A stretch of 62,339 nucleotides of DNA, taken from the NCBI GenBank assembly GCA_022842725.1, contig JALHOZ010000023.1, positions 1 through 62,339 of the forward strand, read 5' to 3'. A program made the translations under genes and the position numbers. This document shows positions 40,388 through 45,595 of the stretch, in pieces; position 1 is the first letter of the stretch, and every line of letters starts with the position of its first letter. A model generated the notes under the pieces. The model did not search any database. It had not been told where the DNA came from and was given only the letters and a program-made list of their open reading frames with translations. The DNA comes from Saprospiraceae bacterium (lineage in GTDB: Bacteria > Bacteroidota > Bacteroidia > Chitinophagales > Saprospiraceae).

Positions 40388-41025
40388 TTATTGTCTTTTG
40401 ACAGATGAAGAGTACATGAGACCCTGACTGCTCCACATCCATTTTGTCCTGACTTCTTTAATTTTGGTTGTGTCTGAAATAAAAACAGGCAGCGCATATG
40501 TTTTTTTGGTTCTTCCGCTTTTATAAGGTAAAATCTTCTCTGAATCAACCACTTGCACTACTGTTTCCTCCGGATAATCTTTTTGTTTTGTCGGTAATAA
40601 TTTGTAATCATCGACTAAAGTATCTGACTTATTGCTCAATACAAGTGTCGCAGCAATGGTTTCAAACGTATCTCTTTTGGGCGTTTGGATTTTTTTTGAT
40701 GTTTTTAAGCCAGTTGATTCCTTTTCAATCGTCACATAAAGCGTATCGGTTTTTACGACCGTCCTCTCCTGAATGCGTATACTATCATGTCGTTCAGGTA
40801 ATTGTTGATCAGGAATGGTTTGATGATGATCGACCCCCATTCGGTATCCAAACATAAAAGACATAATGGAGCATAAAACAAGTATTCCTAAATATAAATA
40901 TTTTTTATTCTGCCGGTTTTTTCAGTATCCAAACGACTTAGAATATTTTCCCAATTTTTATTTTTATCCAAACCTGAGGTATTAGTTGACTCAAATTGTT
41001 TGATCTTATGTTTTAAAGAATTCAT
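40388..41025 (-). pseudogene. Membrane anti-sigma-like gene with a one-base frameshift at an A6 run
   Basis: Starting at the ATG at 41025, the frame reads MNSLKHKIKQFESTNTSG and on to RLDTEK, then hits a stop about 30 bp past an A6 run (T6 at 40917-40922 on the plus strand). In the next frame the sequence continues as KNRQNKKYLYLGILVLCSI, a membrane helix, and runs to the stop at 40388. One extra A gives an unbroken 212-residue protein: short cytoplasmic N-terminus with a W-E-N-I-L helix, one membrane helix (about 43-62) and a periplasmic tail. This layout and the place 26 bp after the sigma gene suggest an anti-sigma factor. The ATG at 40864 alone would start inside the helix. It may be a real mutation, a homopolymer sequencing error or programmed slippage. 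Confidence 0.7.
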
Positions 41026-41051: not shown

Positions 41052-41576
41052 TTAAACCAGATTGATTAAAGTTTCCCTTAACCTCATTTTAGCACGATGC
41101 AGCCAGGACTTTGAGGTTCCTACAGGAATTCCGAGCATTTCACCTATTTCATGGTGGTTAAATCCATCGACTTCATGCAGAAAAAATATAGTGTTGTAAG
41201 GATGACCCAATGCCTGAATGGAGTCCACAATATGTTGATAAGAAAATTGGTCAGATATTTCAAAAATGATGTTTTCGTGAATATCTGAAATTTGTTCGGT
41301 GTATATCTTTTTTTTTCTCAATTCCATCAGACAACGGTTGATACAAATTTTTGACATCCACGACAGGAAAGCAGTCCCTTTATTTTCGTCGTACTGTTGC
41401 CACTTCTGAAAAACAGTCAAAAATGTATCAGAGACCATTTCTTCAGCTATCTGATCATCCGAAATGTATCTTTTGGCGATAAACATCATTTTATCTGCAT
41501 ACAGTTCGTGTACTTTTTTTAATCCAAGAACAGAATCCTTTCTGAACAAACTTATGATTTTTAATTCCTGTTGCAT
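41052..41576 (-). CDS. ECF-type RNA polymerase sigma factor
   Basis: A 174-residue sigma-70 family ECF factor. Region 2 (about 10-85) shows LYADKMMFIAKRYISDDQIAEEMVSDTFLTVF and FLSWMSKICINRCLMELRKKK; region 4 (about 118-172) shows IFFLHEVDGFNHHEIGEMLGI and GTSKSWLHRAKMRLRE. The frame is open to 41615, but the ATG at 41576 (MQQELKIIS) fits the family better. It precedes the anti-sigma-like gene and is divergent, 202 bp apart, from the Cys-rich/MbnP/MbnH group, which it may control. Confidence 0.9.
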   Translation of the reverse strand: MQQELKIISLFRKDSVLGLKKVHELYADKMMFIAKRYISDDQIAEEMVSDTFLTVFQKWQQYDENKGTAFLSWMSKICINRCLMELRKKKIYTEQISDIHENIIFEISDQFSYQHIVDSIQALGHPYNTIFFLHEVDGFNHHEIGEMLGIPVGTSKSWLHRAKMRLRETLINLV

Positions 41577-41778
41577 ATGGTTAATATGTTTTTTAGCGAT
41601 ACATGGTTGCAACATACTTCAAATATTAAAAAATATTTTCCAGTCAGGAGCATTTTGATACATTATGAATGTTCAATGGATAACGGTTTTTTTCTTTTTA
41701 CCATATATAAATTGTCAGCTTGTAACAATTATGACTTTAATCATAATTTCTTAAAAAATATCAAAGTATCTTTGCAGG

Positions 41779-42174
41779 ATGAAAATGTTGGTTTCTTATG
41801 GTTTGATATTTTTTATAGGGTTTTACGCCTCTGCAAGAGTCGTAGGTCTGATAACATGGAAATACCATCAGGAAACCATAGCCAAAACTATCTGTGTCAA
41901 TAAAAACAATCTGAAACTAAAATGTAACGGTAAGTGCCAATTGATGAAAATGATGGATGAAGATCCGAAAAATCAATCATCTTCACTGCCTGCGCCCTCG
42001 CAGAAATCAAGCTTTGAACTCTATCCTTTCTGGATAAAAAATGAATGGACGTCCGTTAATATTCCTTTTTTTGAAAAAAAGAGAAACCGGACATGGAACA
42101 CAACAAACATTTCTTTGCCTTCCGGAGTTGAATTACTTCTCATCAAACCACCCGAAGCTCTTATTTTTGTTTAA
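41779..42174 (+). CDS. Small membrane-anchored Cys-containing protein
   Basis: A 131-residue protein: an N-terminal membrane helix (about 4-27), then a short extracytoplasmic region with Cys39, Cys49 and Cys53 in TICVNKNNLKLKCNGKCQLM, then a polar region and a hydrophobic C-terminal strand. The CNGKC pattern looks like a metal or redox site; I recall similar small proteins in Bacteroidota near metal-related genes, but have no named family. First gene of the probable metal group, divergent from the sigma factor. Confidence 0.6.
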   Translation: MKMLVSYGLIFFIGFYASARVVGLITWKYHQETIAKTICVNKNNLKLKCNGKCQLMKMMDEDPKNQSSSLPAPSQKSSFELYPFWIKNEWTSVNIPFFEKKRNRTWNTTNISLPSGVELLLIKPPEALIFV

Positions 42175-42481
42175 TGTCTAAATTTTTGGATAAACAGAAA
42201 TTTCTGACAAAATAGTAGTTGATTTGGTTTTGTTAATTTATAGTTTTCTTATGTTATACATTAAGGAATATATAATATTACCTGTTACTACTTATTAAGA
42301 GCACTTACCCTCTTCCTTTTAAAATTATATTGTGAATGGTGTAAACCAATAACTCAAACAGATGCCCGAACATTTCTGAGCTATATTTTACACCATCAAA
42401 CGTTTTCACCAGGTTTGTCTGATACTTTGGTATTTTTTCAAACGCTGAAAATGGTTTATTATATTTAATAAAAATGTTGTC
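42175..42481. other. Leader of the CDVCGC outer-membrane protein gene
   Basis: 307 bp without a gene. The main feature is a long two-tier hairpin at 42336-42396. No -7 box is clear. Confidence 0.45.
42336..42396 (+). promoter_or_regulatory. Two-tier hairpin in the leader, candidate RNA regulator
   Basis: The outer arms ATGGTGTAAA (42336-42345) and TTTACACCAT (42387-42396) are perfect complements; inside, ACTCAAACAGATG pairs imperfectly with CATTTCTGAG. There is no T-run after it, so it is not a simple terminator. It ends 85 bp before the start codon at 42482. Confidence 0.45.
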
Positions 42482-43390
42482 ATGTTAAGAGTATTGGCCA
42501 TTTGTATGGTATGGTTACTTCTTTCCAATAATGTGCAAGCCTGTGATGTTTGTGGTTGTTCACTGACAAGTCAGACCTTGGGTGTGTTACCTAAGTTTAG
42601 CAAACATTTTGTTGGTATCAGGTACGGTTTTTCATCATTCCGGTCCAAACACCCTGCTGAAACCATTTATGATAAACCGGTCACAAGCCGGGAGTTATTT
42701 TCTTCCGTGGATATCTGGTCGAGATGGAATATCGGCAAAAAATCACAGATTTTTGTATTTGTTCCTTTTGCTTTTATACAAAAAAATGAAGCAGGTGTCC
42801 AACAATATAATCGGGGATTAGGTGACATGAGTATACTTTTTATGTATTCGTTTTTGCAAAAAGAAAATACAAAAAAAGAAAGTTCTCAGTTATTACAAGC
42901 TGGTGGAGGTATTAAATTTCCAACCGGAAATAATGATTTTGTACAAGATAATGAGTGGATTCCGGCTATTCAAACCGGTACGGCTACTTGGGATTATTTT
43001 GTAAATATCAATTATATATCACGTTGGAAACAATGGTCCTTACAAGGTGAATCTTCTTTTCGAATTAATCAAAATAATGAGAAAAAAGATTTCAGAAATG
43101 GTAACCGGTTACAATCGGCAACACGTATCATGTATACACTTAAAAATAAATATGTAACATGTTTACCCGTCGCCGGTCTGGTGTCAGAATGGTCAAGCCG
43201 GGATTTCCATGAAGGCGCCTACAATGATTTTTCCGGCGGTCACAGTTTATCAGGACAGGTGGGTACAGAACTCTGGTTTAACAAATTTGGTTTGGGAATG
43301 CAGGTTTTTATACCTTTTTATCAAACCCTGGGGGCTGGGCAAATAACAGCAGGTCCCCGGTTTTCAACACATTTATCTTATTTTTTTTAA
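42482..43390 (+). CDS. Outer-membrane protein with N-terminal CDVCGC motif
   Basis: A 302-residue exported protein. The signal peptide ends at Ala20, so the mature protein would begin with Cys21-Asp-Val-Cys24-Gly-Cys26. The rest is alternating beta strands (FVGIRYGFSSFRS, LQAGGGIKFPTG, QVGTELWFNKFGLG) ending THLSYFF with a terminal Phe, as in outer-membrane barrels. I recall similar barrels beside MbnP-like and di-haem peroxidase genes in other Bacteroidota. A three-Cys N-terminus could bind copper or another soft metal (inference). It is 19 bp from the MbnP-like gene. Confidence 0.7.
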   Translation: MLRVLAICMVWLLLSNNVQACDVCGCSLTSQTLGVLPKFSKHFVGIRYGFSSFRSKHPAETIYDKPVTSRELFSSVDIWSRWNIGKKSQIFVFVPFAFIQKNEAGVQQYNRGLGDMSILFMYSFLQKENTKKESSQLLQAGGGIKFPTGNNDFVQDNEWIPAIQTGTATWDYFVNINYISRWKQWSLQGESSFRINQNNEKKDFRNGNRLQSATRIMYTLKNKYVTCLPVAGLVSEWSSRDFHEGAYNDFSGGHSLSGQVGTELWFNKFGLGMQVFIPFYQTLGAGQITAGPRFSTHLSYFF

Positions 43391-43409
43391 TATTTAAATC
43401 AACAAAAAA

Positions 43410-44165
43410 ATGAAATTTAATCTTTTAGCAATTATAGCTTTATTTATATCTGTTTTATCTTTCACATCATGTACAGAAGATGATGAACCAAAAACCCTTG
43501 CTGCCGGCGAGGTCAGTATCGAGTTTGATCACGTTTTTGGCCCGAATCAACTGCCTTTTAATCTGAATACTGAATATACACACCAACGTTTAGGTGAAAA
43601 AATGACGTTTTCAATGTTCAGATATTATGTTTCCAACGTTCGTCTGAAAAAGACAGATGGTTCCTGGTATACTGTTCCAGAAAGTTATTATATCGTGGAT
43701 TTGGGAGTGAATGACGGAACCCATCTGCATTTGGAAAACATTCCCGGTGGTGAATATACCGACATTGAAATGATGTTTGGTGTGGACTCATTACGCAATG
43801 TTTCGGGAGCTCAGACAGGTGCTCTTGATCCGGCAAAAGGAATGTTCTGGAGCTGGAACTCAGGATATATCATGTTAAAAGCTGAAGGAACGTCACCTGC
43901 TTCTTCTGACGGTAGTTTTGCTTTCCACTTGGGTGGATTTAAGGGCGAATTTGCTGTCCCTACAGTTAAAGCATACAGTCTTGGTAAACTAACTGTAGAC
44001 GGTGACAGAGAAGCTGAAATTCATATGGTCGCCAATACCGGCAGGTTGTGGCATGAAGCTGACGGATTGGCTGTCAGATCAACTACACACATGCCGGGAG
44101 CTGTTGCAAAACAAATGACCGGAACATTTTATGACGGTATCGTTTTTGACCACATCCATAATTAA
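43410..44165 (+). CDS. MbnP-like lipoprotein
   Basis: A 251-residue lipoprotein (lipobox FTSC, Cys21) of the MbnP-like family: VSIEFDHVFG at the start, FRYYVSNVRLKK (about 70-81), FGVDSLRN, GMFWSWNSGYIMLKAEG (about 144-160, with Trp147 and Trp149), FAFHLGGFKG and the terminal DHIHN. MbnP partners the di-haem enzyme MbnH in methanotrophs, where a Trp of MbnP is oxidised to kynurenine and the protein binds copper; whether that happens here is inference. Six bases upstream of the MbnH-like gene. Confidence 0.85.
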   Translation: MKFNLLAIIALFISVLSFTSCTEDDEPKTLAAGEVSIEFDHVFGPNQLPFNLNTEYTHQRLGEKMTFSMFRYYVSNVRLKKTDGSWYTVPESYYIVDLGVNDGTHLHLENIPGGEYTDIEMMFGVDSLRNVSGAQTGALDPAKGMFWSWNSGYIMLKAEGTSPASSDGSFAFHLGGFKGEFAVPTVKAYSLGKLTVDGDREAEIHMVANTGRLWHEADGLAVRSTTHMPGAVAKQMTGTFYDGIVFDHIHN

Positions 44166-44171
44166 ATTTTT

Positions 44172-45194
44172 ATGAAAACATACGGTATTATCGGAAAAAC
44201 ATGTTTGTTTTTTGGGCTTACCGTTTTGCTTTCCTGTCAGGGGGACCGGGATACTTTACAAATGAGGTATCCCGGTTACTTTCCTGAGCCGGAATATACT
44301 TTTGGTAACAATGTACTTACTTCGGAGGGATTTGACTTGGGTAAAAAATTATTTTATGACCCTATTCTTTCCAAAGACAGTACGGTCAGTTGTGCATCCT
44401 GTCATGCTCAGGAACATGCATTTGCTGATCACGGAACCGCATTGAGTGTTGGCGTAGGAGGAAAAATGGGAAGCAGAAACAGTCCGGCAATCGTCAATGC
44501 TGCATGGCAAACCAGCTTTATGTGGGATGGAGGTATCAACCATATTGAAATAATGTCTTTTGCACCTTTAACCAATGAAGTCGAAATGGCTGAGGATATG
44601 AATCACATTATTCAAAAACTCTCCCGAAATGATTTGTACAGAAGCTCTTTTCAAGCTGTTTTTGGCAAACCAAAAATTGAGTCCCAACAGGTTTTTTATG
44701 CATTGACACAATATATGGCCATGCTCATCAGTGATGATTCAAAATATGACAGAGTCAAACAAGGTAAAAGTGCTTATAATGAGGAAGAAAGTGCGGGCTA
44801 TTCTTTGTTTATACAAAAATGTGCTACCTGTCATCCCGAACCATTATTTACGGATTATAGTTTTCGCAATACAGGTATTGGTTCGAAAAGCAACGATACA
44901 GGAAGATATAAGATTACACTTGATGATCGTGATGTGTATAAGTTTAAGGTTCCTTCCCTTCGAAATGTAGCCCTTACTTATCCTTATATGCACGACGGAA
45001 GTATCAGAAACCTGAGGAGTGTGCTGGATTATTATTCCGAAGGCATCCGGGAATCTGATCTGTTGGATCCATCTCTTTACAAAAATGGAAGGCCGGGAAT
45101 ATTTTTGACTGAAGATGAAAAAGATAAATTGTTATCTTTTTTGAACACATTGACCGATTTTACTTTCACAACCAATCCATTATTTGCAGAATGA
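44172..45194 (+). CDS. MbnH-like di-haem cytochrome c peroxidase family lipoprotein
   Basis: A 340-residue di-haem c-type protein. Lipobox LLSC (Cys22) anchors it to a membrane. Haem-binding motifs are CASCH (74-78) and CATCH (217-221). The conserved MWDGG follows at about 117-121, and the C-terminal region has KVPSLRNVALTYPYMHDGS (about 259-277), as in the bacterial cytochrome c peroxidase/MauG superfamily. Pairing with an MbnP-like gene points to the MbnH branch, which oxidises a protein Trp. The stop overlaps the start of the next gene by four bases. Confidence 0.88.
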   Translation: MKTYGIIGKTCLFFGLTVLLSCQGDRDTLQMRYPGYFPEPEYTFGNNVLTSEGFDLGKKLFYDPILSKDSTVSCASCHAQEHAFADHGTALSVGVGGKMGSRNSPAIVNAAWQTSFMWDGGINHIEIMSFAPLTNEVEMAEDMNHIIQKLSRNDLYRSSFQAVFGKPKIESQQVFYALTQYMAMLISDDSKYDRVKQGKSAYNEEESAGYSLFIQKCATCHPEPLFTDYSFRNTGIGSKSNDTGRYKITLDDRDVYKFKVPSLRNVALTYPYMHDGSIRNLRSVLDYYSEGIRESDLLDPSLYKNGRPGIFLTEDEKDKLLSFLNTLTDFTFTTNPLFAE

Positions 45195-45595
45195 CCAAGT
45201 CTTTTATAAAATATAGTTTTTTTAGTATTTATATGATTGTCGTAATCATGACGTCCTGCGACAAAAACCAGGATAAAACTATTGCCAATGCGACCATAAA
45301 CTTTTATTTACCAGCCAATAATACAACATTTAGTGAAGGGGACACCATAAAGATTGAAGCAGATATTTCAGCTGATGTATCGATGCACGGATATAAAATA
45401 TATTTGTTTACACCCGGAGAGTCAGAACCTCAATTGTTGGTTGACAGGCATACACACGGCACCATCATATATGTCAGAAACACATGGATTGTACCATCAA
45501 CGGTTGGTAAAGGCAAAATGGAAATTGAAATAATTGCTTTGGTTGATCACGAAGGTCAAACTGTAACCGCCAAAAAAGAAGTGGTCATTCAATAA
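45191..45595 (+). CDS. Small lipoprotein following the MbnH-like gene
   Basis: A 134-residue lipoprotein (lipobox VIMTSC, Cys23) with a single Ig-like beta domain (about 35-134: INFYLPANNTTFSEGDTIKIE, then VTAKKEVVIQ). A His-rich spot DRHTHGT (about 87-93) could bind metal. The gene begins ATGA over the stop of the upstream gene, so it is coupled to it and belongs to the same group. I do not recognise the family with certainty; a DUF4625-like fold is possible. Confidence 0.65.
   Translation: MTKSFIKYSFFSIYMIVVIMTSCDKNQDKTIANATINFYLPANNTTFSEGDTIKIEADISADVSMHGYKIYLFTPGESEPQLLVDRHTHGTIIYVRNTWIVPSTVGKGKMEIEIIALVDHEGQTVTAKKEVVIQ

What the first reader, a model, noticed from the sequence alone, without database searches (positions are those of the whole stretch)
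41052..45595. ECF sigma factor facing a five-gene MbnP/MbnH-like metal group
A sigma factor with an anti-sigma-like gene is divergent from: a membrane-anchored CNGKC protein, an outer-membrane protein beginning CDVCGC, an MbnP-like lipoprotein with WSWNSGY, an MbnH-like di-haem enzyme with two CxxCH motifs, and a lipoprotein with an HTH spot coupled by a 4-bp overlap. No methanobactin genes are present. Together this suggests a surface copper-handling or protein-Trp-oxidation module outside the methanotroph setting, with at least three unnamed partners.
Basis: partly seen in the sequence, partly recalled or inferred. Interest (0 to 1): 0.8.

Follow-up and report, generated by a model that had tools for sequence, protein, structure and literature searches.

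The report
Copper-sensing leader gene for MbnP/MbnH operon
A small gene that looks like a built-in copper sensor, read by the ribosome before the rest of its operon, sits in front of a copper-binding-protein/haem-enzyme pair in this Bacteroidota-type genome, and the same arrangement recurs widely in its relatives.

Summary
It belongs to a family without a Pfam or NCBIfam entry, found in 157 of 395 same-phylum genomes. Three Cys, one Gly and a C-terminal Pro-Pro are invariant in 29 of 29 aligned members. In loci chosen by MbnP alone, 61 of 61 members end in Pro-Pro; other small genes, 5 of 231. The last Cys lies about 66 residues before Pro-Pro. In 62 of 66 cases a copper-type gene follows in the operon. 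Bacteroidota -7 boxes lie before the gene, almost never between it and the next gene. This is the anatomy of the CruR/CutF copper-sensing leader peptides, with different sequence, motif and spacing. Most likely it is a cis-acting nascent-chain copper sensor. The ECF sigma factor is not part of the conserved unit (0 of 80 named loci), though 3 of 5 MbnP loci of this genome have one nearby. A published in-silico list (PMC9973294) probably already holds relatives. Nothing was tested experimentally; no structure model was obtained.

The parts
41767..41774 (+). TATCTTTG, match to the Bacteroidota -7 promoter box TAnnTTTG, 4 nt before the leader ATG; no TTG at the -33 spacing within 26 nt upstream
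   Evidence: the consensus itself is recalled
41779..42174 (+). leader ORF (131 aa), the CNGKC protein: hydrophobic N-terminus, three Cys, C-terminal Pro-Pro
41893..41937 (+). codons of C39 to C53: C-x9-C-N-G-K-C, proposed Cu(I) site
   Evidence: invariant C39, C49, G51, C53 in 29 of 29; coordinates
42148..42153 (+). codons of P124-P125, 6 residues before the end; proposed arrest site (here I-K-P-P, family consensus I-F-H-P-P); 70 residues after C53
42175..42481 (+). 307-bp intergenic region between leader and operon; its 3' part (42320-42481) folds better than shuffles here (z -2.9), but there is no family-wide trend
42482..43390 (+). predicted outer-membrane protein, CDVCGC near the N-terminus; recurring partner
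43410..44165 (+). MbnP-family lipoprotein, W147-x-W149, H173
44172..45194 (+). MbnH-like di-haem enzyme
45191..45595 (+). DUF4625-like lipoprotein with M-H and H-T-H shared with two same-genus relatives; genus-level addition

Best explanation
The operon 41779-45595 is a copper-type operon whose first gene is a cis-acting regulatory leader of the CruR/CutF kind. Proposed mechanism: the leader is transcribed with the operon and its nascent chain is sent to the membrane by the hydrophobic N-terminus. When the ribosome reaches the C-terminal Pro-Pro it pauses. The Cys motif then lies about 66 residues (70 here) from the peptidyl-transferase centre, which is about the length of ribosome tunnel plus translocon (recalled), so it would just be reaching the outer face of the membrane, where it can bind copper. 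Copper binding changes the pause and thereby the expression of the downstream genes. Since these look like copper-acquisition genes, I expect the CruR direction: pause and expression when copper is scarce, release and shut-off when copper is bound. Downstream, the MbnH-like enzyme would oxidise a Trp of the WxW motif in the MbnP-like lipoprotein to make a copper site (recalled from the characterised pair), and the Cys outer-membrane protein would take part in copper passage. Shown here: family, motif, spacing, position, promoter placement, copper-type operon partners. Inferred: arrest, copper binding, direction, and all biochemistry.
For: Invariant C39, C49, G51, C53, P124, P125 in 29 of 29. 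Pro-Pro in the last 15 residues in 38 of 38 Cys-motif small ORFs found without asking for it, 80 of 80 with an N-terminal-only profile in the loci fetched, and 61 of 61 in loci chosen by MbnP alone. Controls: 5 of 231 other small genes, 3 of 48 with a hydrophobic N-terminus, and 1 to 3 of 80 for Pro-Pro in other 15-residue blocks of the family. Last Cys to Pro-Pro: median 66, 5-95% 62.75-70, range 55-74 over 76 members. Next gene on the same strand in 75 of 80, gap median 108 against 39 for later gaps in the same operons, p 3e-11. TAnnTTTG in 38 of 73 regions before the leader (42 boxes, 8.8 expected) but in 1 of 68 leader-to-gene gaps (7.1 expected). Operon partners TonB receptor, MbnP, MbnH, SCO, PCuAC, PepSY_TM; one TonB receptor has TIGR01778 TonB-copper as its best NCBIfam match, below cut-off. 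Five fetched loci hold two leaders, each in front of its own gene set. CruR and CutF precedents: passages.
Against: No arrest, copper binding or expression was measured. The family does not match DUF2946 (0 of 29) and lacks RAPP. Within Pedobacter the spacer is under purifying selection (dN/dS about 0.10, half of the finite-dS pairs only), so it is not free sequence. The leader-to-gene gaps show neither more RNA structure (mean z -0.75 against -1.41, p 0.18) nor more terminator-like sites (10 of 59 against 26 of 82) than control gaps, so the second step of the switch is not identified; a C-over-G excess is slight (p 0.035). In 60 of 80 cases the upstream gene is on the same strand, 9 of them within 25 bp, so 'first in the operon' is not universal. 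Twenty-three of 80 MbnP loci have no leader upstream, and four of the five MbnP homologues in this genome have none. The 60 profile-selected loci were chosen with a profile that includes Pro-Pro.
Confidence: 0.7

Rival explanations
1. The CNGKC protein is a stable membrane-anchored copper chaperone or ligand protein that works with MbnP/MbnH; the Pro-Pro end has a structural or binding role.
For: Hydrophobic N-terminus and an invariant Cys triad; purifying selection along the whole protein in Pedobacter.
Against: Pro-Pro sits within the last 15 residues in every member examined at a near-fixed distance from the Cys motif, while mean column identity is only 27%. Promoters precede it and gaps after it are long. 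It precedes different gene sets, and some loci carry two copies, each ahead of its own set.
Confidence: 0.2
2. The module is controlled mainly by the divergent ECF sigma factor/anti-sigma pair.
For: In this genome 3 of 5 MbnP-homologue loci have a sigma gene within 5 kb, with 29 sigma-region-2 matches in 4.6 Mb; chance 0.002 by a binomial chosen after the fact. L075 has sigma, anti-sigma-like and a CpxP/Spy-like gene (my reading of the sequence) directly before MbnP/MbnH.
Against: Sigma-like genes in 0 of 80, 4 of 60 and 1 of 16 other loci, at or below the density expected from this genome. The anti-sigma-like frame is broken in the window. The two sigma-bearing paralogue loci carry other MbnP subtypes without a leader.
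Confidence: 0.1
3. CutF-type switch with the opposite sign: copper causes the pause, which unfolds an RNA stem-loop and turns the operon on.
For: The 162-nt 3' part of the window's own gap folds with z -2.9; CutF has a CxxxC motif, as CNGKC is.
Against: No family-wide excess of structure before the next gene; the downstream genes look like acquisition rather than detoxification genes.
Confidence: 0.2

Closest known systems
CruR (DUF2946, PF11162) of Bordetella pertussis; PMC9426467 (passages), arrest shown in vitro in PMC12992588 (passages)
   Same: Small exported-type protein with a Cys motif, a conserved distance to a C-terminal Pro-Pro, a long gap to the next gene, heading copper operons with TonB receptors, SCO, PCuAC and MbnPH-like genes.
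   Different: No DUF2946 match (0 of 29); motif mostly [IV]-F-[HRQ]-P-P instead of RAPP; three Cys; spacing about 66 instead of 45.
CutF of Rhodobacter capsulatus and the CutF-like list; PMC9973294 (passages)
   Same: [quoted passage not shown] The list is 19% (raw) Bacteroidota, so relatives are probably in it; the supplement could not be read.
   Different: CutF precedes a multicopper oxidase and acts through a stem-loop; no stem-loop trend here. I saw no experiment on a Bacteroidota member in the passages read.
MbnP/MbnH of methanobactin producers and the MopE/SACCP and CorA/CorB pairs; PMC3621798 (passages)
   Same: PF20243 and a di-haem MauG-like partner side by side; W-x-W aligned to PDB 7l6g (E 2.8e-7); MbnH closest to PDB 6e1c (E 2.2e-44). 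That these entries are the Methylosinus proteins is recalled.
   Different: Both score below the NCBIfam equivalog cut-offs. No methanobactin genes were recognised in the region; no dedicated search was made.

Membership tests
DUF2946 / CruR | match to PF11162 | tested here: not met
   0 of 29 members at E up to 1; hhalign against two DUF2946-type proteins probability 0.1, a weak test
DUF2946 / CruR | C-terminal RAPP | tested here: not met
   residue before Pro-Pro is H 36, R 11, Q 6, S 6, K 5 and others of 76; the one before is F in 56 of 76
DUF2946 / CruR | fixed distance from Cys motif to Pro-Pro | tested here: met
   fixed, but at about 66 instead of 45
CutF-like leader (criteria of PMC9973294) | Pro-Pro within the last 15 residues | tested here: met
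   80 of 80, 61 of 61
CutF-like leader (criteria of PMC9973294) | N-terminal signal sequence | tested here: inconclusive
   hydrophobic N-terminal stretch seen in the alignment; no signal predictor was run
[quoted passage not shown]
   same strand 75 of 80, gap median 108, 95th percentile 356
CutF/CruR function | copper-dependent translational pause acting in cis | not testable with these tools
   needs toeprinting and reporters
MbnP | PF20243 and W-x-W | tested here: met
   178 bits, cut-off 27; W147 and W149 in at least 90% of 28 homologues
MbnP | TIGR04052 equivalog cut-off | tested here: not met
   39 bits against 140
MbnH | two CxxCH haem sites, CCP_MauG domain | tested here: met
MbnH | TIGR04039 equivalog cut-off | tested here: not met
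   216 bits against 363
MbnP/MbnH chemistry | Trp oxidised to kynurenine, copper bound | not testable with these tools
   needs mass spectrometry

The most novel reading that the evidence does not exclude
Bacteroidota have their own large, unnamed class of copper-sensing translation-arrest leaders, unrelated by sequence to DUF2946. It uses an [IV]-F-[HRQ]-P-P type arrest motif in place of RAPP, and a roughly 66-residue spacer that places the Cys triad at the outer mouth of the translocon, so that copper outside the cytoplasm is read during translation. It controls a phylum-wide regulon of copper TonB receptors, MbnP/MbnH, the Cys outer-membrane protein, SCO and PCuAC.
Probability: 0.5. Interest if true: 0.75.

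Novelty: new variant of a known kind. Interest (0 to 1): 0.6.

Why it matters
A recent survey by RAPP/RGPP motif reports that copper-related leader ORFs of that type were not found in Bacteroidota (PMC12992588, passage). The family described here would be invisible to that motif and is common in the phylum (157 of 395 genomes). If it works as proposed, it gives a ready set of genes for asking how ribosomes of this phylum stall, and how a nascent chain reads copper outside the cytoplasm. It also gives a regulatory handle on MbnP/MbnH pairs outside methanotrophs, where I saw no reported function in the passages read.

Tried and rejected
RNA structure or intrinsic terminators as the second step: no excess over control gaps. 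A shared operator upstream of the leaders: no repeated palindrome; the enriched 6-mers seemed mostly parts of the -7 box (42 leaders with a refined start). Homology to DUF2946: none seen; the DUF2946 profile matches 5 of 198 same-phylum genomes, 2 over cut-off. Sigma factor as a conserved partner: rejected outside this genome. The window MbnP alone finds only a chance match in the PDB; the 28-member profile was needed. Paper searches for MbnP, MbnH, CruR, CutF-like, arrest peptides and Flavobacterium copper limitation; only passages of seven papers were read. A structure model of the Cys outer-membrane protein was asked for 12 times; the machine was busy each time and no model exists. The Fisher test (copper-type genes 121 of 208 inside leader operons, 25 of 464 outside) is partly circular, because the reference proteins were taken from those operons. 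An earlier count said 41 Cys-motif ORFs; the output shows 38, two genes appearing in two loci each.
Full report
WHAT IS THERE. I infer Bacteroidota because most named records with the closest loci are Bacteroidota and because of the promoter box type. The anti-sigma-like gene is split over two frames.

THE FIRST GENE IS A LEADER-TYPE GENE. The CNGKC protein has no Pfam or NCBIfam match. Homologues were found with the window protein alone in 49 of 198 same-phylum genomes, and with a 29-member profile in 157 of 395, 70 of 171 genera. Six columns are invariant in the 29-member alignment: C39, C49, G51, C53, P124, P125. A regular-expression search on the Cys motif, without asking for Pro-Pro, printed 38 small ORFs; all 38 have Pro-Pro within the last 13 residues. 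In 77 stretches (window, 16 MbnP loci, 60 profile loci) a profile cut after the Cys motif found 80 proteins, 80 of them ending in Pro-Pro; 5 of 231 other small genes do so. The 60 profile loci were picked by me from the capped list, best scores and different genera first, and that profile includes Pro-Pro. The cleaner test is the 80 named loci chosen by MbnP alone: 61 leader hits, 61 ending in Pro-Pro.

SPACING AND MOTIF. The distance from the last Cys to Pro-Pro has median 66 (55 to 74, n = 76) and in the named loci 63 to 82 (n = 57); it is 70 in the window. Mean column identity is 27%. The residues before Pro-Pro are mostly I/V, F, H/R/Q; the window has L-I-K. CruR has 45 residues; two DUF2946-type proteins found in this phylum have 47 and 49, counted by hand.

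OPERON CONTEXT. Of 66 members in the 60 profile loci, 62 have a copper-type gene in the operon: TonB receptor in 38, MbnP with MbnH in 24 (19 distinct MbnP genes, because tandem leaders share them), Cys outer-membrane protein in 15, SCO in 10, PepSY_TM in 4, PCuAC in 3. The four without are L099, L128, L136 and L142. Of 80 named MbnP loci, 57 have the leader upstream on the same strand, 47 of them adjacent and 10 with a larger gap. Twenty-three do not: three have under 1.2 kb upstream, six are labelled Chitinophaga. In L157 the leader hit lies after MbnP. Of the five MbnP homologues of this genome only the window's has a leader, so the leader goes with one MbnP subtype, not with MbnP in general.

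TRANSCRIPTION. The gap after the leader is longer (median 108, n = 75) than later gaps in the same operons (39, n = 201). TAnnTTTG boxes are enriched before the leader (38 of 73 regions) and depleted after it (1 of 68; other intergenic 12 of 97, mononucleotide shuffles). In 21 of 42 leaders with a refined start a box was found, ending 4 to 63 nt (median 10) before the ATG, which suggests very short 5' untranslated regions. RNA structure and terminator-like sites are not enriched after the leader.

THE OTHER PARTS. The outer-membrane protein family keeps C-[DE]-x-C-G near its N-terminus in 17 of 21 aligned members (counted by eye). MbnP keeps W147, W149, Y153 and H173 and aligns to 7l6g. MbnH is closest to 6e1c. 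The DUF4625-like lipoprotein was found by phmmer in 2 of the 16 MbnP loci, both same genus. Sigma-like genes: 0 of 80, 4 of 60, 1 of 16 other loci, but 3 of 5 MbnP loci of this genome.

MECHANISM AND STATUS. The best reading is a copper-sensing nascent-chain leader (confidence 0.7); the direction of the response and the second step are open. MbnPH-like genes behind CruR homologues (PMC9426467) and Bacteroidota members of a CutF-like list (PMC9973294) are already in print, so this is a variant of a known kind. What I did not find in the passages and searches named is a description of this family's own motif and spacing, or of its tie to MbnP/MbnH and the Cys outer-membrane protein in this phylum.

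Noticed in passing
L216:5550-5894 and L221:5551-5895: Upstream of MbnP in Ohtaekwangia koreensis and a relative, a small ORF ends in FHPPSLA but lacks the Cys triad: a possible leader that reads something else.
   Followed up: partly
L092, L094, L102, L105, L108: Two leaders in one locus, the second a few to about 120 bp after the preceding gene and before MbnP: a leader in mid-operon.
   Followed up: partly
L075:7266-10266: ECF sigma, anti-sigma-like and a CpxP/Spy-like gene (my reading) directly before MbnP/MbnH, without a leader: an alternative control scheme.
   Followed up: no
L065 and L066 (own genome C47, C10): Two further MbnP loci of this genome carry two MbnH-like genes in a row and an ECF sigma factor within 5 kb.
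   Followed up: partly
window 40388-41025 (-): Anti-sigma-like gene split over two frames at an A-rich stretch: frameshift or assembly error.
   Followed up: no
L226:1399-1794 and L229:1390-1776: His-rich DUF2946-type proteins ending in RGPP and RAPP also occur, rarely, in this phylum.
   Followed up: no
L152 (record titled Glaciecola amylolytica): Carries a leader and MbnP of the Bacteroidota type; the record may be mislabelled.
   Followed up: no
window 42337-42470: Stem-loops in the gap after the leader, z -2.9 for 42320-42481; no family-wide trend.
   Followed up: partly
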